Part shown: piece by piece, positions 10,306-55,973 of the stretch
Layout: each line of letters opens with the position of its first letter
Numbering within the stretch: position 1 is the stretch's first letter
Assembly: GCF_011300215.1 (NCBI RefSeq)
Contig: NZ_CP049866.1
Span: 2,480,001 to 2,544,000 of the forward strand
DNA length: 64,000 nt
Direction: 5' to 3'
Source: Nocardioides piscis
GTDB taxonomy: Bacteria; Actinomycetota; Actinomycetes; Propionibacteriales; Nocardioidaceae
The notes under the pieces: model-generated
What the model was told of the DNA's origin: nothing
Database searches by the model: none
The model's input: the letters and a program-made list of their open reading frames with translations, nothing else
Translations under genes and position numbers: made by a program

Positions 10306-10404
10306 CGTATGACGTTGATGGCGCGTTCCTCGCTGGACCGCTGCGCGACGGGCTCCGGTGGCCTACCCTCGTGCGACATGTCCTGTTGACCGGGAAGTTG
10401 AGCC

Positions 10405-45179: not shown

Positions 45180-46205
45180 TCAGGGCGCGAGGTCGATGCC
45201 TTCGGCTGTGGCTCGTGCTCGTAGGCGGGGCAGGATGTCGTGTTCGTAGCTGGTGAGGAAGCGTTCCTGGTCGGGTCCGGGGGCGTGGAAGACGAGGTGG
45301 CGGAAGCCCATGTCGACGTAGTCCCAGATGCGTTGGACGTGTTCGTCGGGGTCGTTGGAGACGATGAAGCGTGAGGCGGTGCGTTCGACGGGGAGGGCGT
45401 CGGCGAGGCGTTGCATCTCGACGGGGTCCTCGACGCCGGTCTTCTCGTCGCTGGAGAGGGCCAGCGCGCCCCAGAACCGGGTGTCGTGCATGGCGCGGTC
45501 GTGGTCGGGGTCGAAGGAGACCTTGACCTCGATCATGAGGTCGAGGTCGTCGAGGGTCTTGTCGGCCTTGGCGGCGCCGTCGGCCAGGGCGGGGAGCAGG
45601 GTGTCGGTGTAGAGCTCGGGTCCTTTGCCGCTGGTGCAGATGAAGCCGTCGCCCATGCGGCCGGCGAGGCGGGTGGCGGCGGGGCCGGAGGCGGCGACGT
45701 AGAGGGGGACCCGGGTCTGGGGGAGGTCGTAGATGGTGGCTTTGTCGAGGTTGTAGTAGTCGCCGGTGTAGGTGACGCGTTCGCCTTCCCACAGGGCGGT
45801 GATGACCTGGAGTGCTTCCTTGAGGCGGGCGAAGCGTTCTTTTCCGTCGGGCCAGTGGAGGCCGAGGGGGGCTTCGTTCATGGATTCGCCGGAGCCGACG
45901 CCGAGGATGATGCGTCCGGGGGCCAGGCAGCCGAGGGTGGCGAAGGCTTGGGCGATGACGCCGGGGTGGTAGCGGAAGGTGGGGGTCAGGACGCTGGTGC
46001 CGAGGTTGACGCGGGTGGTGCGGGCGGCGACGGCGCCGAGCCAGGGGAGTGCGGCGGGGGCGTGGCCGCCGTCGTGGCGCCAGGGTTGGAGGTGGTCGCT
46101 GACGAAGACTGAGTCGAAGCCGGAGTCCTCGGCGAGGACGGCGAGGTCGACGAGGTGTTGGGGGGCGAACTGTTCTGAGGATGCCTTGTAGCCGAACCGG
46201 AGCAT
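45180..46205 (-). CDS. fgd: F420-dependent glucose-6-phosphate dehydrogenase-like protein
   Basis: A 341-residue LLM-fold protein with a close match to [38 protein letters not shown] with the catalytic His38 and Trp42, [26 protein letters not shown] with the general acid Glu, and [16 protein letters not shown] for the phosphate site. It reduces F420 using glucose-6-phosphate. It is 5 bases downstream of an LLM oxidoreductase gene on the same strand, so the pair could make and use F420H2. Codon use is odd: many GAA, CAA and CGA codons and almost all C in third position, unlike the GAG/CAG-rich neighbours, suggesting a different origin. Confidence 0.85.
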
Positions 46206-46210
46206 GAGAC

Positions 46211-47059
46211 CTACAGCCCGCCCAGCTCAGCGAGGGCCTCGAGCTGTTCCACGTAGTGAGCGACCGACTCGGCGCGGATCGTGGTGTTGAGGACGGTCGC
46301 GCCGGCCGACTGGGCGGCCTCGAGCTTGGCGACGGTGCGTTCCGGGGCGCCGATCGGGTCGAGGTGACCCGCCGGCAGCACGACCTCGAAGCCGTCAGGC
46401 TGGTCGACCTGGTCGAGCAGCGCCCGGTAGCCGTCGAGGGGGAGGCCGAAGGGGACCCACCCGTCGGCCAGCGTGGCCGCGCGTTGCAGCGACCTCAGGG
46501 AGCTGCCACCGATCCACAGGGGAACGTGACGCTGCACTGCGGTGGGCCGGACGACCACGTCCGCGAACTGGTAGTGGCTGCCTGAGTAGGTCGGCTCCTC
46601 GACGCCGAGGCTCGCCCTCAGGGCGCGCAGCGCGTCGTCGGCACGGCCACCGCGGCCGGCGAAGGGTGCGCCCAGCAGCTCGAACTCCTCCTGGAGGCTC
46701 CCGACACCGAGGCCGAGGACGAGGCGACCGTTGCTGACGCGATCGAGGGTCCCGTAGCGCTTGACGATCTCCAGGGGGTGGTGATAGCCCAGCACGAGCA
46801 CCTGGGTGGCCAGTCGGATCCTCGTCGTCCGGGCCGCGAGATAGCCGAGGGTGGCCAGCGGGTCCCAGTACGTCGCGCCGCGCTGCACCGCGACGTCGCT
46901 CGGGACGACGACGTGCTCGCTGCAGGTGAGGTGGTGGAACCCCAGCCGGTCGGCCGTCTCGGCGATGGTGGCGAGACCGGTGATCCCGGCGTCCTGCTCC
47001 CACGCGGCGACAAGCCCGGGGACAGCGGTGACGACCGGGCTGATGAGGCCGACCTTCAT
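46211..47059 (-). CDS. LLM class F420-dependent oxidoreductase, likely in the IclR regulon
   Basis: A 282-residue LLM protein. It starts MKVGLISPVVTAVPG, with TIAETADRLGFHHLTCSEHVVVP (F420-type), TTRIRLATQVLVLGYHHPLEI with the bulge region, RLVLGLGVGSLQEEFE and VPLWIGGSS near 180. These patterns are typical of F420-dependent reductases or dehydrogenases. It precedes the FGD gene by 5 bases, and the TCCCGGTGACTGGGA palindrome stands 67 bases upstream, shared with the divergent IclR gene. This links it to the steroid genes, so it may reduce or oxidise a steroid intermediate; no direct evidence. Confidence 0.82.
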   Translation of the reverse strand: MKVGLISPVVTAVPGLVAAWEQDAGITGLATIAETADRLGFHHLTCSEHVVVPSDVAVQRGATYWDPLATLGYLAARTTRIRLATQVLVLGYHHPLEIVKRYGTLDRVSNGRLVLGLGVGSLQEEFELLGAPFAGRGGRADDALRALRASLGVEEPTYSGSHYQFADVVVRPTAVQRHVPLWIGGSSLRSLQRAATLADGWVPFGLPLDGYRALLDQVDQPDGFEVVLPAGHLDPIGAPERTVAKLEAAQSAGATVLNTTIRAESVAHYVEQLEALAELGGL

Positions 47060-47125
47060 GCGACCACTCTTCTTCGACTCATGATCAGCCAGTCAAGCGG
47101 TCTTTGCGCCGGCTCACCGGCGACC

Positions 47126-47140
47126 TCCCGGTGACTGGGA
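47126..47140. promoter_or_regulatory. IclR-regulon palindrome 1, TCCCGGTGACTGGGA
   Basis: First of three near-identical 15-bp palindromes. It differs from the perfect form at one base and lies between the divergent LLM oxidoreductase (67 bp from its start) and IclR gene (103 bp). The other copies are at 48682 and 52318. A size of 15 bp with central symmetry fits IclR-family operators. Confidence 0.65.
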
Positions 47141-47225
47141 AGAATGAATTTCAGTTTTGGGTTCACAGCCGCCTCGAGCACTGCTAACGTCTGCTTGGTC
47201 AGCACCTAGAATTCATTTCAGTTTT
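47141..47225. repeat. two 18-bp AT-rich direct repeats upstream of iclR-like gene
   Basis: AGAATGAATTTCAGTTTT (47141-47158) and AGAATTCATTTCAGTTTT (47208-47225) differ at two positions and are 67 bp apart, start to start. The second ends 17 bases before the IclR start codon. They are strikingly AT-rich for this DNA and directly adjoin palindrome 1. They may be activator sites or a second operator class for the IclR gene. Confidence 0.5.
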
Positions 47226-47242
47226 CTCTTCTGGAGGCCACC

Positions 47243-48064
47243 GTGTCCATCGCCACCGCCGAAGCCCCGACGACGCGCCAGCTGCCCCCGTCGATGGTCG
47301 AACGGATGACTCTCATCCTGGATGCCTTCCCGCACCGGACGAGTCGCCTGACCCTGGAGGACGTCGCGCGGGCGACCCACCTGCCGAGGTCGACGGCGCA
47401 CCGCATCCTCGACCAGCTGGTCAAGCTGCAGTGGCTCGAGCACACCTCCTTCGGCTACAGCCTGGGGCGCCGTTCCCTGCAGCTGGGCGGCGGCGGGGAC
47501 GAGGCCAGCGAGCTCCGCTCCGCAGCCTCGCCGCTCATCCACGCCCTGATGCTGCGCACGGGACTCACCGTGCACCTGGCGACCCTCGACGAGGGCCACG
47601 TGCACTACCTCGACAAGATCGGTGGACGCTTCGCCAGCACCGTGCCCTCGAAGGTGGGCGGGCACGCGCCGGCCTACTCGACGGCGCTGGGCAAGGCGAT
47701 GCTCGCCTGGTTGGCCCCCGAGGACGTCGAGCAGCGGGTGGAGGCCGGCATGTCGGGCACCGGTGGGCGCACCGCTCTCGACCTCAACGCCTTCCACCGG
47801 GAGCTGCACCAGGTCCGGAGCCGCCGAGGCCTGGCCTTCGAGCGAGGTGAGAGCTTCCAGCACCTCGGCTGCGTCGCCGCTGCGATCCAGGCGCCGGAAG
47901 GCCCCATCGGGGCCATCTCCCTCGTGGGGGAGGCAGGTGCCTGCCTCGAGCGGGTCGCCCCGCTCGTGCTCGACACCGCGCGCAGGGTCTCGCTGACCCT
48001 CTTCCCCGACCTCGAGTCCCGGCGCATGCGGCGCTCGCGACCCCAGGTCGTCGGGATCATCTGA
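47243..48064 (+). CDS. IclR family transcriptional regulator of steroid cluster
   Basis: A 273-residue IclR protein. The winged helix covers about residues 18-80 (MVERMTLILDAF, LTLEDVARATHLPRSTAHRILDQLVKLQWLE). The GAF-like effector domain follows with LRTGLTVHLATLDEGHVHYLDKIGG as its opening block and ends in LDTARRVSLTLFPDLE. GTG 47243 follows CTGGAGGCCACC. It converges on the hsaB-like gene with a 6-base gap. The palindrome shared by its own promoter and two steroid promoters makes it the best candidate regulator of the cluster. A steroid or a steroid-CoA thioester would be the expected effector. Confidence 0.88.
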   Translation: MSIATAEAPTTRQLPPSMVERMTLILDAFPHRTSRLTLEDVARATHLPRSTAHRILDQLVKLQWLEHTSFGYSLGRRSLQLGGGGDEASELRSAASPLIHALMLRTGLTVHLATLDEGHVHYLDKIGGRFASTVPSKVGGHAPAYSTALGKAMLAWLAPEDVEQRVEAGMSGTGGRTALDLNAFHRELHQVRSRRGLAFERGESFQHLGCVAAAIQAPEGPIGAISLVGEAGACLERVAPLVLDTARRVSLTLFPDLESRRMRRSRPQVVGII

Positions 48065-48070
48065 GGCGAC

Positions 48071-48616
48071 TCAGCCCCAGTGGTCGCCCCATCCCCACAG
48101 GGTCGGGGCGACCTCGGCGTGCAGCTCCTCCACACCGAAGCGGCCGCGGAAGAACAGCATCGGTCGGTCGTCTCCCTCAGCGGTCTCCAGCTCGAGCACG
48201 CGCCCGACGACCACGTCGTGGTCTCCCTCCACGTGGACGGTGTGGACCTCCGCGTGCACCCGCATCAGCACCCCGGGCAGTGACGGGGTGCCCCACGCGG
48301 ACATGGTCCAGTCGAGGCCGTCGTACTTCTCCCCGCGGCTGGAGCCGAAGCGGTCGCAGAGGTCGCGCTGGTCCTCGCCGAGCACGTTGACGGTGAACCG
48401 ACCGGCTTCGCGGATGCGAGGCCAGGCACGCCCGCGGTGGTCGGCGCAGAAGAGGACCAGGGGCGGTTCGAGCGACACCGACGCGAACGACTGGCAGGCG
48501 AAGCCCACCGGCTCGTCGGCATACCCCGTCACGACGGTCACGCCCGAGGCGAAGGACCCCATCGCGGCGCGCATCTCGCCTGGCGTCGGGGGTGTCAGCT
48601 GCATGGTGTCTTCCAT
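48071..48616 (-). CDS. hsaB: flavin reductase component of 3-HSA monooxygenase (HsaB-like)
   Basis: A 181-residue flavin-reductase-domain protein. MRAAMGSFASGVTVVTG, GFACQSFASVSLEPPLVLFCADH and FTVNVLGEDQRDLCDRF are typical of HpaC/HsaB proteins, which reduce FMN or FAD with NADH and hand it to an oxygenase. The likely partner is the HsaA-like oxygenase at 52395, which is on the other strand and in another transcription unit. It starts at ATG 48616, with a second ATG four codons on. It is divergent from hsaD across a promoter region holding palindrome 2. Confidence 0.85.
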   Translation of the reverse strand: MEDTMQLTPPTPGEMRAAMGSFASGVTVVTGYADEPVGFACQSFASVSLEPPLVLFCADHRGRAWPRIREAGRFTVNVLGEDQRDLCDRFGSSRGEKYDGLDWTMSAWGTPSLPGVLMRVHAEVHTVHVEGDHDVVVGRVLELETAEGDDRPMLFFRGRFGVEELHAEVAPTLWGWGDHWG

Positions 48617-48681
48617 GCCGGGACCGTACGGCGACCCGCGCCGGCCGCTGCTCGAGCGGTCCCGGTCAGCGGTCGCACGGC

Positions 48682-48696
48682 TCCCGGTGATCGGGA
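48682..48696. promoter_or_regulatory. IclR-regulon palindrome 2, TCCCGGTGATCGGGA
   Basis: Second copy of the 15-bp palindrome, one mismatch from perfect symmetry, in the 123-base region between divergent hsaB-like (66 bp from its start) and hsaD-like (44 bp from its start) genes. A central site could control both at once. Confidence 0.65.
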
Positions 48697-48739
48697 CGTG
48701 CGGGGGGTGTGGGCGGGGCCCGGTTCCTACGGTGAGCCC

Positions 48740-49603
48740 GTGACTGTGACCCATGAGGAGAGCCTGCGCGAGCTGGCGACCGACGACGGAGTGCTGCGCT
48801 ACCACGAGGCAGGGCCGGCGAACGGTCGACCACTCGTCCTGCTGCACGGCTCTGGCCCGGGCGTGACGGGCTGGCGCAACTTCCGCGGCAACCTGGACCT
48901 GTTCGCCCAGCACTTCCGCTGCCTGGTGCTCGAGCTGCCGGGCTTCGGCGTGAGCGACCCGACCGAGCAGCACCCGATGGCTGCGGCCCTCCCGGCCGTG
49001 GAGCGGTTCCTCGACGGCCTCGGTCTCGACCAGGTCGACGTGGTCGGCAACTCGATGGGCGGTGTGGTCGCCACGCGCCTCGCACTCGCGCAGCCCGACC
49101 GCATCCGTCGCCTGGTCACGATCGGCGGGATGGGGCGCAACATCTTCAGTCCGGGGCCGGGCGAGGGGATCAACCTCCTCGTCGAGTTCACCGAGGACCC
49201 GACCCGTGAGCGGCTCGTGACGTGGTTGCGCTCCATGGTCTTCGACCAGTCCCTGGTCACCGACGAGCTGGTCGAGGAACGCTGGCAGCAGGCGACCGAG
49301 CCCGACACCCTGGCGAGCGCGCGGCGGATGTATGGCCGCGGCGTGCTGCAGGCCATGGCGGCCGCCGCCGAGCGCTCGGCGGAGCCGCCCTACTGGGCGA
49401 TGCTGCACAAGATCAAGGCCCGCACCCTCATCACCTGGGGGCGGGACGACCGCGTCAGCCCGCTGGACATGGCGTTGGTGCCGATGCGGACCATCCCCGA
49501 CGCCGAGCTGCACGTGCTGCCCAGCTGCGGGCACTGGGCGATGATCGAGCAGAAGGCGGCCTGGGAGTCGGTCGTCCTGTCCTTCCTGACGAGGGTCGAC
49601 TGA
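48740..49603 (+). CDS. hsaD: meta-cleavage product hydrolase (HsaD-like)
   Basis: A 287-residue alpha/beta hydrolase of the C-C bond hydrolase group. HGSGPGVTGWRNFRGNLD near residue 35 is the hallmark of BphD/HsaD enzymes, followed by the nucleophile elbow VGNSMGGVVA with Ser at about 107, Asp in WGRDDRVSPLD (about 240) and His in CGHWAMIE (about 265). It would hydrolyse 4,9-DSHA, the ring-cleavage product of HsaC, to DOHNAA and HHD. GTG 48740 is chosen; a GTG two codons later is also possible. The stop overlaps the start of kstD (TGATG). Confidence 0.88.
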   Translation: MTVTHEESLRELATDDGVLRYHEAGPANGRPLVLLHGSGPGVTGWRNFRGNLDLFAQHFRCLVLELPGFGVSDPTEQHPMAAALPAVERFLDGLGLDQVDVVGNSMGGVVATRLALAQPDRIRRLVTIGGMGRNIFSPGPGEGINLLVEFTEDPTRERLVTWLRSMVFDQSLVTDELVEERWQQATEPDTLASARRMYGRGVLQAMAAAAERSAEPPYWAMLHKIKARTLITWGRDDRVSPLDMALVPMRTIPDAELHVLPSCGHWAMIEQKAAWESVVLSFLTRVD

Positions 49604-51282
49604 TGGCCGGGTGGGACCACGAGGTCGACTTCCTCGTCGTCGGCTCCGGCGGCGGCGGCATGGCTGCCGCGCTCACGGCCCACGACGCGGGACTGACCAC
49701 GCTCGTGGTGGAGAAGGCCACGATGTATGGCGGCAGCACGGGCATCTCCGGTGGCGGGATCTGGATCCCCAACAACCCGACGCTGCGTGCGGCCGGGCAC
49801 GACGACAGCCGCGCGTCGATCCGGCGCTACCTCGACCTCCTCACCGACGGCCAGGTCTCGCCGGCCCGGCTCGACGCCTACGTCGACCAGGGCCCGGCGG
49901 CCATGGAGCTGCTCGGGAGGAGCCGCTGGTGGCGGCTCGCCTGGACCAAGGGATATGCCGACTACCACCCGGAGTGGGAGGGCGGGCGACCGCTCGGCCG
50001 CTCAGTGGAGCCGCTGCCGTTCGACACCCGCAGGCTGGGCGAGGACGAGGCCTTCCAGCGCCCCAACAGCCTGAAGGGCCCGCTGGGACTGTGGATCACC
50101 GCCGCGGACTATCGCGACCTGGCGATGGTCAAGCGGACCTGGCGCGGCCGGTGGAAGTCGGTCGTCGCCGCGTGGCGCGTGTCGTCCAACGCGGTCCGTC
50201 GTCGCCACATGGCCACCGGCGGCCGGGCCCTGGTGGCCCGGCTGCGGATGGCGCTCAAGGACGCCGACATCCCGCTGTGGCTGCGCACCCCGATGACCGC
50301 CCTCGTCGTGGAGGAGGGACGTGTCGTCGGCATCGAGGTCACGCGTGACGGCGCCTCGATGAGGATCCGTGGTCGCCACGGGGTCCTGCTCGCCTGCGGC
50401 GGCTTCGACCACGACCCGGACCTGCGTGAGGCCCACCTGCCCGAGGGCGCACGGCCGGACCGCAGCCTCGGTGCCCGGGAGAACACCGGTGACGGGATCG
50501 TGGCCGGTCTCGGGCTGGGCGCCGCCGTGCAGTTCATGGACGACGCCTGGTGGATACCGAGCGTTGCCCACCCCGCCGGGCCGATGATCCCCCTGGTCTC
50601 CGAGCGGGCGATCCCCGGCCAGGTGATCGTGTCGACCGACGGCAAGCGGTTCACCAACGAGGCCTCGCCCTACGTCAACTTCGTCCACGACCAGCTCGAG
50701 GGCAAGCACCTCGAGGCCTGGTGCGTGATGGACTCGCGGGCCCGGTCTCGCTACCCGTTCGCGCAGGTCCTGCCGGGGGCGGCGTTCCCCCGGGCGTTCT
50801 ATGACGCCGGCACGGTCCACCGGGCCGAGAGCCTGCGCGAGCTCGCCCGCTCGACCGGCGTGCACGAGGACAACCTCGTGGCCACGGTCGAGCGATTCAA
50901 CGGGTTCGCCCGGACCGGTGTGGACGCCGACTTCGGTCGCGGGGCGTCGGCATACGACCGCTACTACGGTGACCCCAACCTGCCGAACCCCAACCTGGAC
51001 GTCATCGACAAGGCGCCCTTCTATGCGTTCCGCATCGAGATCGGTGACCTGGGGACCAAGGGTGGCCTGGTCTGCGACGAGCACAGCCGGGTGCTGCGCG
51101 ACGACGGGTCGGTCATCGACGGCCTCTATGCCACGGGCAACGCGAGCGCCTCGGTCATGGCCAACGAATACGCCGGGCCCGGCGCCACCATCGGACCCTC
51201 CATCGTCTTCGGCTACGTCGCCGCGCGCGACGCCGGCCGTCGGGCAGGGGTCACCACGGGCGTTGCCGGGCGGGTCGGCTGA
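49603..51282 (+). CDS. kstD: 3-ketosteroid Delta1-dehydrogenase
   Basis: A 559-residue FAD enzyme. The FAD motif VVGSGGGGMAAAL is at residues 12-24, and YGGSTGISGGGIWIPNN near 40 is the KstD-type sequence after it. The C-terminal NASASVMANEYAGPGATIGPS holds the Tyr and Gly of the active site that correspond to Tyr487 and Gly491 of the Rhodococcus enzyme. It adds the 1,2 double bond to 3-keto-4-ene steroids. Its length is within the 510-570 range of the family. It lies between hsaD and kshB in one operon; with 9alpha-hydroxylation this opens ring B. Confidence 0.88.
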   Translation: MAGWDHEVDFLVVGSGGGGMAAALTAHDAGLTTLVVEKATMYGGSTGISGGGIWIPNNPTLRAAGHDDSRASIRRYLDLLTDGQVSPARLDAYVDQGPAAMELLGRSRWWRLAWTKGYADYHPEWEGGRPLGRSVEPLPFDTRRLGEDEAFQRPNSLKGPLGLWITAADYRDLAMVKRTWRGRWKSVVAAWRVSSNAVRRRHMATGGRALVARLRMALKDADIPLWLRTPMTALVVEEGRVVGIEVTRDGASMRIRGRHGVLLACGGFDHDPDLREAHLPEGARPDRSLGARENTGDGIVAGLGLGAAVQFMDDAWWIPSVAHPAGPMIPLVSERAIPGQVIVSTDGKRFTNEASPYVNFVHDQLEGKHLEAWCVMDSRARSRYPFAQVLPGAAFPRAFYDAGTVHRAESLRELARSTGVHEDNLVATVERFNGFARTGVDADFGRGASAYDRYYGDPNLPNPNLDVIDKAPFYAFRIEIGDLGTKGGLVCDEHSRVLRDDGSVIDGLYATGNASASVMANEYAGPGATIGPSIVFGYVAARDAGRRAGVTTGVAGRVG

Positions 51283-51285
51283 GCC

Positions 51286-52311
51286 ATGGCCACCGTCCGC
51301 GTCGTCGAGGTCATCCGCGAGACCGCGGACGCCCACTCGCTCGTGCTCGAGCACCTCGGCGGCGAGCGGTTCGACTACCGACCCGGACAGTTCCTCACCG
51401 TCCGGGTGCCCTCGGAGCGGCCCGGGGGAGCGGCGCGGTGCTATTCGCTGTGCTCCTCGCCGGTGCGTGACGACGCGCTCAAGGTGACCGTCAAGCGCAC
51501 CCGCGACGGCTTTGCCTCCAACTGGTTGTGCGACAACGTCGTCGTCGGCTGCGAGCTCGAGGTGCTGCCCCCTGCGGGCACCTTCGTGCCCCGCGACCTC
51601 GACGGCGACTTCCTGCTCCTCGCCGGCGGCAGCGGGATCACCCCGGTCCTGTCCATCCTCAAGTCGGCGCTGCACGCCGGCCACGGCCGGGTCGCGCTGG
51701 TCTATGCCAACCGCGACGAGGCATCGGTCATCTTCCGCGACGAGCTGGTCGCGCTTGCCGCGGAGTTCGGTGGCCGACTCGTCGTGGTGCACTGGCTCGA
51801 GTCGGTGCAGGGACGACCGACCGAGGCCTCGTTGCGGGGGCTGCTGGCGCCGTACGACGACCGCGAGGCCTTCGTCTGCGGTCCCGGACCCTTCATGGAC
51901 CTCGCCACCGAGACCCTGGCCGGGCTGGGGGTGCCGCGCGAGCGGGTGCACCAGGAGGTGTTCACCTCGCTTGCGGGCGACCCCTTCGCCACGGTCGAGC
52001 TGCCGACGGACGCCGCGGGCGGGTCCGGTGGGGAGGTCGCCGAGGTCGTGGTCGAGCTCGACGGGGACGTCACGTCCCACGCCTGGCCCGCAGGCGCCAA
52101 GCTGCTCGACGTCCTGCTCGCAGCGGGCCGCCCGGCACCCTTCTCCTGCAGGGAGGGCGCCTGCAGCGCCTGCGCGTGCGTGCTGCAGGAGGGGACCGTC
52201 GAGCTCGAGCGCAACGAGGTCCTCGACGCCGCCGACCTGGCCGAGGGGCTCATCCTGTCCTGCCAGGCGCGGCCCACCTCGGCTGTGGTCAAGGTGTCCT
52301 ACGACGTCTGA
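51286..52311 (+). CDS. kshB: 3-ketosteroid-9alpha-hydroxylase reductase component
   Basis: A 341-residue ferredoxin-NADH reductase with three parts. The FAD part has RCYSLCSSP (about residue 47-55), the NAD part has LLAGGSGITPVLS (about 108) and VCGPGPFM, and the C-terminal plant-type 2Fe-2S domain has CREGACSACAC with three Cys ligands and the fourth in LSCQA. The order and length match KshB. It delivers electrons to the Rieske oxygenase KshA, whose gene is not in the window. ATG 51286 follows the kstD stop by one base. Confidence 0.9.
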   Translation: MATVRVVEVIRETADAHSLVLEHLGGERFDYRPGQFLTVRVPSERPGGAARCYSLCSSPVRDDALKVTVKRTRDGFASNWLCDNVVVGCELEVLPPAGTFVPRDLDGDFLLLAGGSGITPVLSILKSALHAGHGRVALVYANRDEASVIFRDELVALAAEFGGRLVVVHWLESVQGRPTEASLRGLLAPYDDREAFVCGPGPFMDLATETLAGLGVPRERVHQEVFTSLAGDPFATVELPTDAAGGSGGEVAEVVVELDGDVTSHAWPAGAKLLDVLLAAGRPAPFSCREGACSACACVLQEGTVELERNEVLDAADLAEGLILSCQARPTSAVVKVSYDV

Positions 52312-52317
52312 GGGGCC

Positions 52318-52332
52318 TCCCGGTGACCGGGA
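52318..52332. promoter_or_regulatory. IclR-regulon palindrome 3, perfect TCCCGGTGACCGGGA
   Basis: Third copy, perfectly symmetric around a central G, just after the kshB stop and 62 bp upstream of the hsaA-like start. It marks a separate promoter for the hsaA-hsaC-FAD-SDR unit. See 47126 and 48682 for the others. Confidence 0.7.
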
Positions 52333-52394
52333 ACGGGACAGCGCCGACCAGCGCAGCGGTGACAGCGTGGCGGTCGAGACTTCCAGGAGGCGTC

Positions 52395-53579
52395 ATGACC
52401 AATCCCGCACTCGCAGCCGTCGAAGAACGAGCCGAGGAGATCGCCGCGCTCGCCGAGTCGAACGAGCAGCTCGGCCGGCTCGACGACGCGGCCGCCAAGC
52501 TGCTCCGCGACACCGGTGTGATCCGGATGCTCCAGCCCAAGGCGTACGGCGGCGCTGAGGCCCACCCGCGCGACTTCGCCGAGACCGTCATGCGGATCGC
52601 CTCGATCGACGGCTCGACCGGCTGGGTGGCCGGCATCGTCGGCGTCCATCCGTGGGAGATGGCGATGTGCGACAAGGACGTGCAGGAGGAGATTTGGGGT
52701 CAGGACAACGACACCTGGATCGCGTCCCCCTATGCGCCGATGGGCATCCTCAAGCCCGTCGACGGGGGCTATGTCTTCAACGGCCGCTGGCAGTTCTCCT
52801 CGGGCACCGACCACTGCGACTGGATCTTCCTCGGGGCCTTCCTCGGTGACGCGGAGGGCGAGCGGGTCATGCCGCCGCAGAACTACCACGTGATCCTGCC
52901 GCGTGCGGACTACGAGATCGTCGAGGACTCGTGGGACGTCGTCGGGCTGCGCGGCACCGGCTCCAAGGACATCATCGTCAAGGACGCCTTCATCCCCGAG
53001 AACCGGGTTGTCGCGTTCTCGAAGTTCCTCGACGGCTCGCAGCCGCGCGAGGCCGGGCTGACCAGCCCGACCTACCACATCCCCTTCACCACGGCCTTCC
53101 CGTTGGGCATCACGAGCGCCGTGATCGGCATCGCGGAGGGCGCCCTCGCCGCGCACCTGGCCTACCAGCGGACGCGGGTCCAGATCACCGGCACCCGCGT
53201 CACCGACGACCCCTACGTGCTCTATGCGATCGGTGCCGCCGCTGAGGAGATCAAGGCCTCGCGCACGGCCATGCTCGACAACGTCTGCCGGTTCTACGAC
53301 GCCGCGGAGGCGGGGCGCGAGATCACCTTCGCCGAGCGGGCGGCGTCGCGCCGTACGCAGGTGGCAGCGGCCTGGCGGTCCGTGCGCGCCATGGACGAGG
53401 TGGTCGCCCGCTCGGGTGGCAACGGCCTGCGGATGGACAACCCGATCCAGCGGTTCTGGCGCGACGGCCACATGGGCCTGGCGCATGCGATCCACGTCCC
53501 GGGCTCGGTCTTCCACGCGTCGGCGCTGACCGACATCGGGGTCACCCCGCCGCCCGGCCCCATGCTCTCGATGATCTGA
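52395..53579 (+). CDS. hsaA: 3-HSA flavin-dependent monooxygenase, oxygenase component
   Basis: A 394-residue protein of the acyl-CoA-dehydrogenase-like group D monooxygenases. It opens VEERAEEIAALAESNEQLGRLDDAAAKLLRDTGV in short family blocks, then PKAYGGAEAHPRDFAETVMRIA, GRWQFSSGTDHCDWIFLG and DSWDVVGLRGTGSKDIIV, as in HsaA and related hydroxylases. It hydroxylates 3-HSA to the catechol 3,4-DHSA with reduced flavin from HsaB. CCAGGAGGCGTC precedes ATG 52395. It is 13 bases upstream of the hsaC-like gene. Confidence 0.88.
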   Translation: MTNPALAAVEERAEEIAALAESNEQLGRLDDAAAKLLRDTGVIRMLQPKAYGGAEAHPRDFAETVMRIASIDGSTGWVAGIVGVHPWEMAMCDKDVQEEIWGQDNDTWIASPYAPMGILKPVDGGYVFNGRWQFSSGTDHCDWIFLGAFLGDAEGERVMPPQNYHVILPRADYEIVEDSWDVVGLRGTGSKDIIVKDAFIPENRVVAFSKFLDGSQPREAGLTSPTYHIPFTTAFPLGITSAVIGIAEGALAAHLAYQRTRVQITGTRVTDDPYVLYAIGAAAEEIKASRTAMLDNVCRFYDAAEAGREITFAERAASRRTQVAAAWRSVRAMDEVVARSGGNGLRMDNPIQRFWRDGHMGLAHAIHVPGSVFHASALTDIGVTPPPGPMLSMI

Positions 53580-53592
53580 AGGAGAACACTCA

Positions 53593-54510
53593 ATGACCGA
53601 CATCCGCGGGCTCGGCTACCTCCGGGTCCAGACCACCGACGTCCCCCGCTGGCGCGAGCTGACGGTCGAGGCGCTCGGGCTGGCCGAGACCACCGGCCCG
53701 GTCGAGGACGGCCTCTACCTGCGCATGGACGAGCGCGAGTCGCGACTCGCCGTCCTGCCCGGCGACACCGACCGCGTGCTCGCCGTCGGCTGGGAGGTCC
53801 GCGACCAGTTCGCCCTGTCCCGGGTCGGGCGTGACGTCGAGGCCGCCGGCTTCGGGGTCAAGCAGCTCAGCGCGAGCGAGTGCCACGAGCGCCGGGTGGA
53901 GGCCGCCATCTACTTCGACGACCCGGCCGGCACGCCGGTGGAGGTGTTCTTCGGCCCGGTCCTCGACCACGACCCGGTTCGCACGCGCTGGACCCAGCGG
54001 TTCGTCACCGGCGACCAGGGCCTGGGCCACGTCGTGCTGCCGACGACCGCCATGGACGAGACCGTGGCGTTCTACACCGAGGTGCTCGGCTTCCTGCCCC
54101 GCGGCGCGATCCGTCTCGGCGGTCCGGCCACGGACGGCCCCGTGCGACGGGTCCGGTTCATGGGGGTCAACCAGCGCCACCACAGCCTCGCCGTCTGCCC
54201 CGCCCCGCACGGCGAGGCGCCCGGTCTGGTGCACCTGATGATGGAGGTCGACTCGCTCGACGCCGTCGGTCGGGCGCTCGACGAGGTCAACCGTCGTGGG
54301 TTCTCGTTGTCGTCCACGCTGGGCCGTCACACCAACGACAAGATGGTGTCGTTCTACGTGCGGGCGCCCGGCGGCTGGGACCTCGAGCTCGGCACCGAGG
54401 GGATGCTCGTCGACGAGAGCTACTACACGGCCGAGGAGATCACTGCAGACTCCTACTGGGGTCACGACTGGTCAGGCTCGGAGCCCCTCGCGGCGTTCGC
54501 CACGCCATGA
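53593..54510 (+). CDS. hsaC: extradiol dioxygenase for steroid catechol (HsaC-like)
   Basis: A 305-residue two-domain extradiol dioxygenase (type I, BphC class). The Fe(II) ligands in the C-terminal domain are His in GLGHVVLP (about 146), His in LVHLMMEV (about 214) and Glu in WDLELGTEG (about 264). The His and Tyr used in catalysis fall in RHHSLAV and VSFYVRAPGGWD. It cleaves 3,4-DHSA at the meta position. AAGGAGAACACTCA precedes the ATG. It is in one unit with hsaA, and its stop overlaps the next gene. Confidence 0.9.
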   Translation: MTDIRGLGYLRVQTTDVPRWRELTVEALGLAETTGPVEDGLYLRMDERESRLAVLPGDTDRVLAVGWEVRDQFALSRVGRDVEAAGFGVKQLSASECHERRVEAAIYFDDPAGTPVEVFFGPVLDHDPVRTRWTQRFVTGDQGLGHVVLPTTAMDETVAFYTEVLGFLPRGAIRLGGPATDGPVRRVRFMGVNQRHHSLAVCPAPHGEAPGLVHLMMEVDSLDAVGRALDEVNRRGFSLSSTLGRHTNDKMVSFYVRAPGGWDLELGTEGMLVDESYYTAEEITADSYWGHDWSGSEPLAAFATP

Positions 54511-55973
54511 GCCCTGCGGCGTCGGGGGACCAGGTCCAGGACGCGCTGGTCGACGTCGACGTCGACGTCGTCGTCGTCGGTTTCGGCATCGCGGGTGCGT
54601 GTGCGGCGATCAGTGCCGCCGAGGCCGGGGCCTCCGTGCTCGTGGTGGAGCGCGCGGGGGCACCGGGCGGGTCGTCGGCCCTGTCCGGGGGCGAGATCTA
54701 TCTGGGTGGTGGCACGCCTGTGCAGCAGGCCTGCGGGTTCGACGACACCGCCGACGACATGTTCGCGTTCCTCAACGCGGCCCTCGGTCCGCACGCCGAC
54801 GAGGAGAAGCTGCGCGTCTATTGCAACGACAGCGCGGAGCACTTCCGCTGGCTGGTCGACCACGGGGTGGAGTTCCGGCCGAGCCTCTATGACGCGCCTA
54901 CCTGGATGCCCCCGACCACCGACGGCCTGATGTGGCTGGGTGAGAACAGCTGGCCCTTCGACACCGTGGCGCGACCTGCTCCTCGTGGCCACCGTCCGCC
55001 GGCGCCCCACTTCGCCGGCAAGCTGCTGATGGATGCGCTGGTCGCTGCGGCGGAGGACGTCGGCATACGCACGATCGTGGACACCCGGGTGAGCTCGCTC
55101 CTGGTCGAGTCGGGTCGGGTGGTCGGTGTCCGGGTCCGGCACTACGGCGAGGAGCGCGAACTGCGGGCCCGCAAGGGCGTCGTGCTCGCGACCGGAGGCT
55201 TCGTCGACAACGAGGAGATGCTGGCCGCCCATGCACCGGCACTGCTCGGGCACGGCAAGGTCAGCGACGGTCTCGACGACGGCTCCGGGATCCGGATGGC
55301 CCAGGTGGTCGGGGCCGCGACCCGGCGGATGCATGCGCACGAGGTCGCGCTCACCGTGCTGCCGGCCCTCGCGGCCCGCGGCATCCTGGTGAACGCGCAC
55401 GGCCAGCGCTTCATCAACGAGGACACCTATCCCGGCACGATCAGCCACGCGGCCGTCGTGCACCAGCCCGGCCCCTGGTGGGTGGTGGTCGACGAGGCCG
55501 GCTTCGACGACGTCCCGGCCGCGGACCTGTGGGGCGTCCGACCCACCCACGCCGCCGAGACCCTGGCTGAGCTCGAGGCTGACCTGGGCATGCCGCCGGG
55601 GTCGCTGGAGGCGACGGTGTCGGCCTACAACCGCTGTGCCGAACAGGGGGAGGACCCGCTGTTCCACAAGGCCGCGCGCTGGCTCCGGCCGCTGCGCCCG
55701 CCCTATGCCGCCGTCGACGTGGCGGCCGGCTTCCACCCCGGGGACCGGGACAGTGCGGCTCCCGCGACCGGGGTCGCCGGCTTCACGCTCGGCGGGCTCC
55801 ACACCAGCGTCGACGGGGAGGTGCTGTCCCTGACCGGGGCGCCGGTGCCGGGCCTGTTCGCCGCCGGGCGGGCCACCGCCGGAATGCACGGTGACGGCTA
55901 CATCAGCGGTACGTCGCTGGGCGACGGCTCCTACTTCGGGCGCCGCGCGGGGCGTGCATTGGCGGACTCGTGA
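54507..55973 (+). CDS. FAD-dependent steroid dehydrogenase-like protein (KstD/Delta4-dehydrogenase group)
   Basis: A 488-residue flavoprotein of the fumarate reductase/KstD superfamily. FAD motif VVVGFGIAGACAA at residues 22-34, GGSSALSGGEIYLGGG near 50, and the C-terminal LFAAGRATAGMHGDGYISGTSLGDGSYFG. The last part differs from the KstD at 49603 and resembles Delta4-(5alpha)-dehydrogenase-like members, so it may add the 4,5 double bond to 5alpha- or 5beta-steroids. That would fit the nearby 3alpha-hydroxysteroid dehydrogenase. This assignment is inference; it could be another Delta1-dehydrogenase. Its start overlaps hsaC (ATGA), and the next gene overlaps its stop. Confidence 0.72.
   Translation: MSPAASGDQVQDALVDVDVDVVVVGFGIAGACAAISAAEAGASVLVVERAGAPGGSSALSGGEIYLGGGTPVQQACGFDDTADDMFAFLNAALGPHADEEKLRVYCNDSAEHFRWLVDHGVEFRPSLYDAPTWMPPTTDGLMWLGENSWPFDTVARPAPRGHRPPAPHFAGKLLMDALVAAAEDVGIRTIVDTRVSSLLVESGRVVGVRVRHYGEERELRARKGVVLATGGFVDNEEMLAAHAPALLGHGKVSDGLDDGSGIRMAQVVGAATRRMHAHEVALTVLPALAARGILVNAHGQRFINEDTYPGTISHAAVVHQPGPWWVVVDEAGFDDVPAADLWGVRPTHAAETLAELEADLGMPPGSLEATVSAYNRCAEQGEDPLFHKAARWLRPLRPPYAAVDVAAGFHPGDRDSAAPATGVAGFTLGGLHTSVDGEVLSLTGAPVPGLFAAGRATAGMHGDGYISGTSLGDGSYFGRRAGRALADS

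What the first reader, a model, noticed from the sequence alone, without database searches (positions are those of the whole stretch)
47126..52332. Three copies of a 15-bp palindrome define a probable IclR steroid regulon
TCCCGGTGACTGGGA (47126-47140), TCCCGGTGATCGGGA (48682-48696) and TCCCGGTGACCGGGA (52318-52332) occupy the three intergenic promoter regions of the cluster: LLM/iclR, hsaB/hsaD, and upstream of hsaA. Each is at most one base from perfect symmetry, and I see no other intergenic copy in the window. Size and symmetry fit an IclR-family operator, and the only local regulator is the IclR protein at 47243. Most described steroid regulators in actinobacteria (KstR, KstR2) are TetR proteins, so an IclR operator of this form could be new. 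The sequence facts are direct; the protein-DNA match is inference.
Basis: partly seen in the sequence, partly recalled or inferred. Interest (0 to 1): 0.82.

Follow-up and report, generated by a model that had tools for sequence, protein, structure and literature searches.

The report
Conserved switch for steroid-degradation genes
Three near-identical 15-letter DNA palindromes beside steroid-degradation genes are real, conserved protein-docking sites, already predicted in a related bacterium, that most likely let an IclR-type protein turn these genes on.

Summary
In detail: the three palindromes are where stated, are the genome's only exact matches to TCCCGGTGAYYGGGA, and lie in the three promoter regions named. 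Footprinting shows a real site: 54 of 54 divergent hsaB/hsaD regions from IclR-carrying loci of named genomes have TCCCGNTSANCGGGA with at most two mismatches, against 0 of 126 windows inside neighbouring genes. It is not new: the palindrome was published in 2020 as "Lcin1" in Nocardioides simplex (PMC7593942), and the regulator proposed there sits where this IclR's ortholog lies. Added here: (1) the site lies 29-31 bp before a -10-like hexamer at hsaD, hsaA and some other promoters, without a conserved -35, which looks like activation; (2) a weaker tandem copy (48660-48674) has that geometry towards hsaB; (3) iclR carries a different element, AGAATKMATTTCAGTT, largely confined to iclR promoters; (4) a fourth site outside the window, about 45 kb from site 3, precedes an ABC-transporter/amidase operon near a CasG-type gene. 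IclR is the best candidate binder; a co-occurring TetR protein is a serious rival. Binding is untested.

The parts
47126..47140 (.). Site 1, TCCCGGTGACTGGGA, LLM/iclR intergenic; geometry fits the LLM promoter better than the iclR promoter
   Evidence: 44 of 48 LLM-divergent iclR promoters in the loci have <=2 mismatches to the family consensus
48682..48696 (.). Site 2, TCCCGGTGATCGGGA, hsaB/hsaD intergenic; serves hsaD
   Evidence: 54 of 54 hsaB/hsaD regions conserved; TACGGT at offset 46
48660..48674 (-). Degenerate tandem copy GACCGCTGACCGGGA, centre 22 bp from site 2; probably serves hsaB
   Evidence: 2 mismatches to TCCCGNTSANCGGGA read on the - strand, TACGGT at offset 46 towards hsaB; similar arrangement in 5 close relatives
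52318..52332 (.). Site 3, perfect palindrome TCCCGGTGACCGGGA, upstream of hsaA
   Evidence: exact consensus in 21 of 30 genus hsaA loci, 0 of 299 control windows exact
48728..48733 (+). Predicted -10 of hsaD, TACGGT
   Evidence: TANNNT at offset 45+-1 in 35 of 48 non-redundant loci
48623..48628 (-). Predicted -10 of hsaB, TACGGT
   Evidence: offset 46 from the tandem copy
52363..52368 (+). Predicted weak -10 of hsaA, CAGCGT
   Evidence: NANNNT at offset 44-45 in 14 of 18 non-redundant loci
47091..47096 (-). Possible -10 of LLM, TTGACT
   Evidence: offset 44; weak, NANNNT only 5 of 44 at the top offset in this group
47141..47156 (+). Second element, distal copy AGAATGAATTTCAGTT
47208..47223 (+). 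Second element, proximal copy AGAATTCATTTCAGTT, near the predicted iclR transcription start
   Evidence: one search counts 2 matches (<=2 mismatches) in this genome, these two
47185..47190 (+). Possible -10 of iclR, TAACGT
   Evidence: TANNNT 13-28 bases before the GAAT of the second element in 53 of 62 non-redundant loci
47243..48064 (+). iclR, IclR-family regulator, 273 aa
   Evidence: Pfam HTH_IclR and IclR_C above cutoff; below the cutoffs of the 8 NCBIfam models matched
46211..47059 (-). LLM-class F420-dependent oxidoreductase (TIGR03619)
   Evidence: above cutoff
48071..48616 (-). hsaB-like flavin reductase
   Evidence: best NCBIfam hit HsaB, 182 bits, cutoff 230
48740..49603 (+). hsaD-like hydrolase
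   Evidence: best hit HsaD, 291 bits, cutoff 400
49603..51282 (+). KstD-like FAD dehydrogenase
   Evidence: NF009473 (FAD-binding protein) above cutoff; 3-oxosteroid 1-dehydrogenase models next, below cutoff
51286..52311 (+). ferredoxin-NAD(P)H reductase, KshB-like by context
   Evidence: Fer2, NAD_binding_1 and FAD_binding_6
52395..53579 (+). hsaA-like monooxygenase
   Evidence: best hit HsaA, 384 bits, cutoff 450
53593..54510 (+). hsaC-like extradiol dioxygenase
   Evidence: TIGR03213 352 bits (cutoff 366) and HsaC 332 bits (cutoff 450)

Best explanation
The palindrome is the operator (Lcin1 type) of a steroid/bile-acid regulon. The IclR protein at 47243 most likely binds it as a dimer and activates transcription. 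The operator lies at about -57 to -43 from the inferred start site, 29-31 bp before a -10-like hexamer, where a conserved -35 box is missing, so the regulator would replace the -35 contact. One palindrome can serve both divergent genes; where spacing differs (hsaB here) a second tandem copy is used. The iclR gene itself is controlled through a different element at its predicted start site, probably as repression by IclR itself or by the partner TetR protein. Shown: positions, conservation, spacing, co-occurrence. Inferred: that IclR binds, that it activates, and the steroid or bile-acid effector.
For: Conservation: hsaB/hsaD 54 of 54 with <=2 mismatches (25 exact, 27 with one, 2 with two); inside kstD/hsaC/fdR 0 of 126, upstream of these genes 4 of 140. 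Spacing: TANNNT at offset 45+-1 in 35 of 48 non-redundant hsaD promoters (22 at the top offset, corrected P 4e-38) although the distance to the start codon ranges 49-269; NANNNT at 44-45 in 14 of 18 hsaA; tetR direction NANNNT at 44-46 in up to 33 of 42; own ABC operon TAGCGT at 45. Between operator and -10, hsaD has no base shared by 60% or more before offset 44 except G at offset 16 (30 of 48). IclR link: genus genomes with an IclR hit have 3.98 exact sites on average (47 genomes), those without 1.48 (149), P 2e-12; control pattern 0.38 vs 0.46. Exact sites within 300 bp upstream of IclR paralogs L018, L028, L029, L220, L221 (37-57% identity; L028 and L029 are close to each other). Discordant genomes G102 and G034. 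Form: PobR-like core, tandem sites at 18-22 nt as in PMC8222616.
Against: No binding or expression data. The TetR_C_20 protein co-occurs almost as well and has degenerate copies in its own promoter. The 54 hsaB/hsaD regions were picked through loci that carry IclR. iclR carries its own, different element, so IclR autoregulation through Lcin1 is not supported. 18 of 23 IclR paralogs examined lack an exact upstream copy. G195 has IclR paralogs and no exact site. Lcin1 departs from the published IclR group-1 consensus at one symmetric position. In the named-genome loci only 13 of 54 hsaA promoters carry the site. In the hsaB direction 42 of 64 loci show the spacing neither directly nor through a secondary copy; it is weak towards kshA and LLM and absent towards iclR. 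Fixed spacing can also occur with repressors. Genomes with neither IclR nor hsaA hits still have 1.49 exact copies on average.
Confidence: 0.55

Rival explanations
1. IclR binds Lcin1 but represses, and a steroid or bile-acid ligand releases it.
For: The known steroid regulators KstR and KstR2 are described as repressors; IclR includes repressors, activators and dual regulators (PMC8222616).
Against: Operator upstream of the -35 zone, no conserved -35, near-invariant spacing to the -10 in unrelated promoters.
Confidence: 0.2
2. The TetR_C_20 protein (L032:8224-8811, 41 kb from hsaA; KR76_18040 position in N. simplex) binds Lcin1, and IclR binds only its own element AGAATKMATTTCAGTT.
For: TetR and IclR hits occur in 46 and 47 of 196 genomes, 44 shared, and TetR hits are present in 22 of 22 further genomes that carry the IclR cluster. 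A degenerate copy lies upstream of tetR in 16 of 20 loci and in 26 of 42, at <=2 mismatches. The second element is specific to iclR (87 heptamers in 32.7 kb of iclR upstream sequence, 16 in 1737 kb elsewhere).
Against: G102 has 6 exact sites, one upstream of hsaA, and no TetR hit at 1e-15; G034 has TetR and no exact site, only a 2-mismatch copy overlapping the upstream gene. Second TetR copies or distant relatives L325-L330 lack the site (0 of 6 at <=2 mismatches). The tetR promoter shows the activator-like spacing, unusual for TetR autoregulation.
Confidence: 0.2
3. Another, unlinked regulator binds Lcin1.
For: Exact copies occur in genomes with neither IclR nor hsaA hits (mean 1.49 in 146).
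Against: In a sample of 30 genus loci (one per genome, not restricted to genomes without IclR), 21 exact copies lie inside predicted genes, so many copies look incidental.
Confidence: 0.07
4. Chance palindromes in GC-rich DNA.
For: 254 15-bp near-palindromes in the window; family pattern equals control in this genome, 3 and 3.
Against: Footprinting and spacing.
Confidence: 0.01

Closest known systems
Lcin1 motif of Nocardioides simplex VKM Ac-2033D (PMC7593942; passages seen)
   Same: Consensus TCCCGGT[C/G]ACCGGGA; site 3 is identical, sites 1 and 2 differ at one position. Found before lithocholate-induced genes; candidate regulator KR76_18060, whose place in the gene order is held by an IclR ortholog (61%) in Pimelobacter simplex ATCC 6946.
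   Different: There: cluster E (bile-acid genes) and hsaEGF. Here: the ring A/B genes hsaB, hsaD, kstD, hsaA, hsaC. The text has no occurrence of 'IclR', and the passages seen give no spacing to a -10.
SRTF2 of P. simplex (PMC7062782, passages)
   Same: Steroid-induced IclR gene beside a ketosteroid-dehydrogenase gene with a MarR gene upstream; L221 of P. simplex ATCC 6946 fits this and has an exact TCCCGGTGACCGGGA upstream of its IclR gene.
   Different: Only about 42% identical; a paralog. Its own DNA target is not given in the passages seen; the TetR protein SRTF1 binds upstream of it.
PobR/PcaU-type IclR operators (PMC8222616; passages, abstract and Results section)
   Same: PobR motif TTGTCCGATSATCGGACAR shares the core CCGATSATCGG with Lcin1 variants; tandem sites at 18-22 nt are common in the family.
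   Different: Outer bases differ; this protein scores 95 bits against the PcaR/PcaU/PobR cutoff of 285.
KstR3 of the Rhodococcus cholate cluster
   Same: PMC7593942 treats KR76_18060 as a KstR3 ortholog; PMC8708139 lists kstR3 with hsaB3 and hsaD3 in Saccharopolyspora hirsuta cholate clusters (passages); Rhodococcus jostii L205 has IclR-LLM-HsaB-HsaD-KstD-HsaA-HsaC with a 2-mismatch site.
   Different: The original paper is not held, so its protein family and function were not checked. The KstR3 of Mycolicibacterium neoaurum is a TetR protein (passages).
KstR and KstR2
   Same: Control of steroid catabolism in actinobacteria.
   Different: TetR repressors; their motifs are reported as distinct from Lcin1.

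Membership tests
Lcin1 operator | Consensus palindrome TCCCGGT[C/G]ACCGGGA | tested here: met
   Site 3 exact, sites 1 and 2 one mismatch each
Lcin1 operator | Lies upstream of steroid or bile-acid catabolic operons | tested here: met
   hsaB/hsaD, hsaA, LLM; also the operon near a CasG gene
Lcin1 operator | Genes induced by lithocholate | not testable with these tools
   Needs expression data
IclR-family regulator (47243-48064) | IclR helix-turn-helix and IclR C-terminal domains | tested here: met
   PF09339 46.9 bits (cutoff 22), PF01614 103.9 (cutoff 24)
IclR-family operator | Matches GKTYCRYW3-4RYGRAMC or TGRAACAN1-2TGTTYCA | tested here: inconclusive
   Compared by eye with PMC8222616: core fits group 1 except one symmetric position (C/G instead of T/A)
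IclR-family operator | Tandem sites with centres 18-22 nt apart (common, not obligatory) | tested here: met
   48660 and 48682, 22 nt; 21-22 nt in 5 close relatives
IclR-family operator | Bound by the IclR protein | not testable with these tools
   Only co-occurrence and geometry were available
PcaR/PcaU/PobR subfamily (TIGR02431) | Curated score cutoff 284.75 | tested here: not met
   95.3 bits
KstR/KstR2 regulon | TetR regulator encoded beside the operators of the window | tested here: not met
   The regulator gene among the three sites encodes an IclR protein; KstR motifs and genes were not searched for in this genome

The most novel reading that the evidence does not exclude
A two-tier, two-operator circuit conserved across actinobacterial families: an IclR activator with a strict operator-to--10 spacing drives bile-acid/steroid ring degradation, transport and the gene of its TetR partner, while iclR is held down through a separate element at its start site by that TetR protein or by IclR itself. 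Bile acids would trigger the cascade by relieving iclR repression.
Probability: 0.4. Interest if true: 0.62.

Novelty: new member of a known kind. Interest (0 to 1): 0.45.

Why it matters
Steroid catabolism and its control in Nocardioides and relatives are described as much less known than in mycobacteria and rhodococci (PMC7807495), and such strains are used in steroid production. The work ties a published motif, until now with only a candidate regulator, to an IclR family, extends it to ring-degradation genes and several actinobacterial families, and yields a simple promoter rule (operator, 29-31 bp, TANNNT) that makes activation versus repression directly testable.

Tried and rejected
Chance: rejected by footprinting. 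"IclR is the only possible regulator": rejected, since a TetR_C_20 gene co-occurs. "No other copies": qualified, see the tandem copy at 48660 and the site outside the window. "TetR can be excluded because it is absent elsewhere": tried and failed, 22 of 22 further genomes searched carry a TetR hit (21 from other genera, one Nocardioides). Recognition-helix comparison: Lcin1-linked IclRs mostly keep LPRS[TS]-x-[HF]-R-I-[LM], but other IclRs come close, so it was not used. The ABC-transporter set (30 loci, one start off the contig) has the exact site in 5 of 29 and <=2 mismatches in 13 of 29 upstream, control windows 15 of 229 at <=2, so that target is not uniformly conserved. The sample of exact sites from 30 genus genomes put 21 of 30 inside predicted genes; no IclR was found among the flanks of the other 9. 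A simple home-made gene caller was used for context; its starts are approximate. Non-redundant sets drop sequences at least 80% alike in the compared flank. Counts were typed from the tables. The loci sets overlap in part: a few genus genomes (L034-L048) are also among the named records (L133-L212), so the 96 loci are not all distinct. The second element's sequence was not searched for in the literature, and no literature search was aimed at the -10 spacing. Change after re-checking: confidence in the best explanation lowered from 0.57 to 0.55 because 42 of 64 hsaB-direction loci lack the spacing.
Full report
Observation. They are the only 0- or 1-mismatch places for TCCCGGTGAYYGGGA in the window and the only exact ones in the 3,784,668-base genome. 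Neighbouring proteins: an IclR regulator (PF09339, PF01614), a TIGR03619 LLM oxidoreductase, HsaB-, HsaD-, KstD-, HsaA- and HsaC-like enzymes and a ferredoxin reductase. The Hsa proteins score below their equivalog cutoffs, so the gene names are by best match.

Conservation. Nearest named relatives are Nocardioides. In the genus, 21 of 30 fetched hsaA loci have an exact TCCCGNTSANCGGGA within 300 bp upstream and 23 of 30 one with <=2 mismatches; of 299 control windows none is exact and 23 have <=2 mismatches. Of 47 iclR loci, orthologs and paralogs together, 33 have <=2 mismatches; their control windows (33 of 423) include other true sites. In 80 loci from named genomes (Nocardioides, Microbispora, Geodermatophilus, Saccharopolyspora, Amycolatopsis, Streptomyces, Rhodococcus and others), 54 of 54 divergent hsaB/hsaD regions, 44 of 48 iclR promoters with divergent LLM, 11 of 32 iclR promoters without it, and 13 of 54 hsaA promoters have <=2 mismatches; upstream controls 4 of 140, inside-gene controls 0 of 126. 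These loci were found through IclR, so they cannot show what happens without it. Why most hsaA promoters there lack the site was not tested; in many of them hsaA lies about 8 kb after iclR rather than 5 kb.

Prior art. [quoted passage not shown] simplex, named it Lcin1, placed it in the lithocholate-induced cluster E and before hsaEGF, and proposed KR76_18060 as a presumed regulator needing further research. In P. simplex ATCC 6946 (L189) the gene order SnoaL, LLM, IclR, SDR, KshA, TetR, SDRs, CoA ligase matches the KR76_18025-18075 annotations quoted there, so KR76_18060 is almost certainly the IclR ortholog (61%); this identification is mine. PMC7062782 (passages) reports a steroid-induced IclR, SRTF2, beside a ketosteroid-dehydrogenase gene with a MarR gene upstream; L221 fits that description and has an exact site upstream of its IclR gene. 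In the listings of my paper searches (one search shows 20 of 113 papers) and the passages read I saw no experimental assignment of this motif to a protein; supplements and unheld papers were not seen.

Promoter grammar. Aligning sequences on the operator shows TANNNT starting 45+-1 bases after the operator start in 35 of 48 non-redundant hsaD promoters, although the distance to the start codon varies from 49 to 269. hsaA has NANNNT at 44-45 in 14 of 18. In the hsaB direction TANNNT stands at 46 or 44 in 12 of 56 non-redundant sequences, with a small cluster at 68 (4). That cluster fits a degenerate tandem copy 21-22 bp on: in this window and 5 close relatives the hsaB hexamer lies 46 bases (44 in one) from the start of that copy. 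Over all 64 hsaB sequences 15 have the spacing directly, 7 only through a secondary copy, and 42 neither; weak secondary copies (<=4 mismatches) also occur in 20 of 61 hsaD-direction sequences, so single cases can be chance. The LLM direction is weak (NANNNT at 47, 5 of 44; P 0.02), the kshA direction too (5 and 4 of 42; P 0.009), and the iclR direction shows no such spacing. No -35 hexamer is conserved at hsaD. With the usual 7-8 bases from -10 to start, the operator spans about -57 to -43, which I read as activation; this is inference.

Which protein. For IclR: exact-site counts follow IclR presence (3.98 vs 1.48 per genome, control flat); IclR paralogs carry exact sites upstream in 5 of 23 cases; the operator core is PobR-like. 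For TetR: a TetR_C_20 protein is found in 46 of 196 genomes, 44 of them among the 47 with IclR, in 22 of 22 further genomes, with degenerate sites upstream. Discordant genomes: G102 has IclR paralogs, no TetR at 1e-15 and 6 exact sites, one upstream of hsaA. G034 has TetR, best IclR hit only 36%, no exact site. G072 has IclR paralogs, a 34% TetR and 6 exact sites, though none at the hsaA locus fetched (L132). G120 has TetR (43%) and an IclR of 40-46% with the second element and an exact site. G195 has IclR paralogs, no TetR and no exact site. G029, G064 and G106 have hsaA but neither regulator, with 2, 0 and 0 exact sites. On balance this favours IclR but does not settle it.

Second element. 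AGAATKMATTTCAGTT (<=2 mismatches) occurs twice in this genome, both times upstream of iclR. Its core heptamer occurs 87 times in 32.7 kb of iclR upstream sequence and 16 times in 1737 kb elsewhere in the same 96 loci; 67 of 96 iclR promoters have it, and most of the rest have a one-mismatch form. The heptamer is absent upstream of the paralogs L042-L048 (37-56%) and of tetR in the 20 loci examined; a variant is present upstream of L220 and of the divergent IclR of G120. A TANNNT lies 13-28 bases before it in 53 of 62 promoters, so the element covers or follows the predicted start, a repressor-like place. It resembles A/T-rich IclR operators (group 2 of PMC8222616) and, from recall only, also KstR half-sites; its binder is open.

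Wider regulon. A further exact family-consensus site lies outside the window at L032:12136-12150 (genome 2577136), about 45 kb from site 3. It stands 189 bp before an SBP_bac_5 ABC-transporter/amidase operon near a CasG (steroid-24-oyl-CoA synthetase, above cutoff) gene, with TAGCGT at offset 45. Relatives of this binding protein (E <= 1e-60) occur in 38 of 196 genus genomes, all 38 among the 47 with IclR (P 3e-32). The exact site recurs upstream of 5 of 29 of them, <=2 mismatches in 13 of 29. This points to bile acids; the substrate is inference.

Verdict. The finding is real and well conserved, rediscovers Lcin1, and gains a promoter rule, a tandem copy, a second element and a clearer rival. 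Binding, sign of regulation and ligand remain untested.

Noticed in passing
L032:12136-12150 (genome 2577136-2577150): Exact family-consensus site before an ABC-transporter/amidase operon near a CasG-type CoA ligase gene; relatives of its binding protein (E <= 1e-60) are found only in IclR-carrying genomes of the genus sample (38 of 38).
   Followed up: partly
window 47141-47156 and 47208-47223: Second conserved element AGAATKMATTTCAGTT, largely confined to iclR promoters.
   Followed up: partly
L221:1325-1339: Exact TCCCGGTGACCGGGA upstream of the likely SRTF2 gene of Pimelobacter simplex.
   Followed up: partly
window 10381-10395: One-mismatch copy (family consensus), intergenic, before a 989-aa hybrid histidine kinase gene; one-mismatch copies are common in related genomes, so probably chance.
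   Followed up: partly
L005:1501-1515 and 1792-1806 (genome 876906, 877197): Two one-mismatch copies in opposite orientation, starts 291 bp apart, beside the 3' end of a predicted 291-aa gene.
   Followed up: no
window 45180-46205: F420-dependent glucose-6-phosphate dehydrogenase (TIGR03554, above cutoff) directly beside the LLM oxidoreductase, a possible source of reduced F420 for it.
   Followed up: no
window 54507-55973: FAD-binding protein related to KstD (NF005510 above cutoff) overlapping the end of hsaC; substrate unknown.
   Followed up: no
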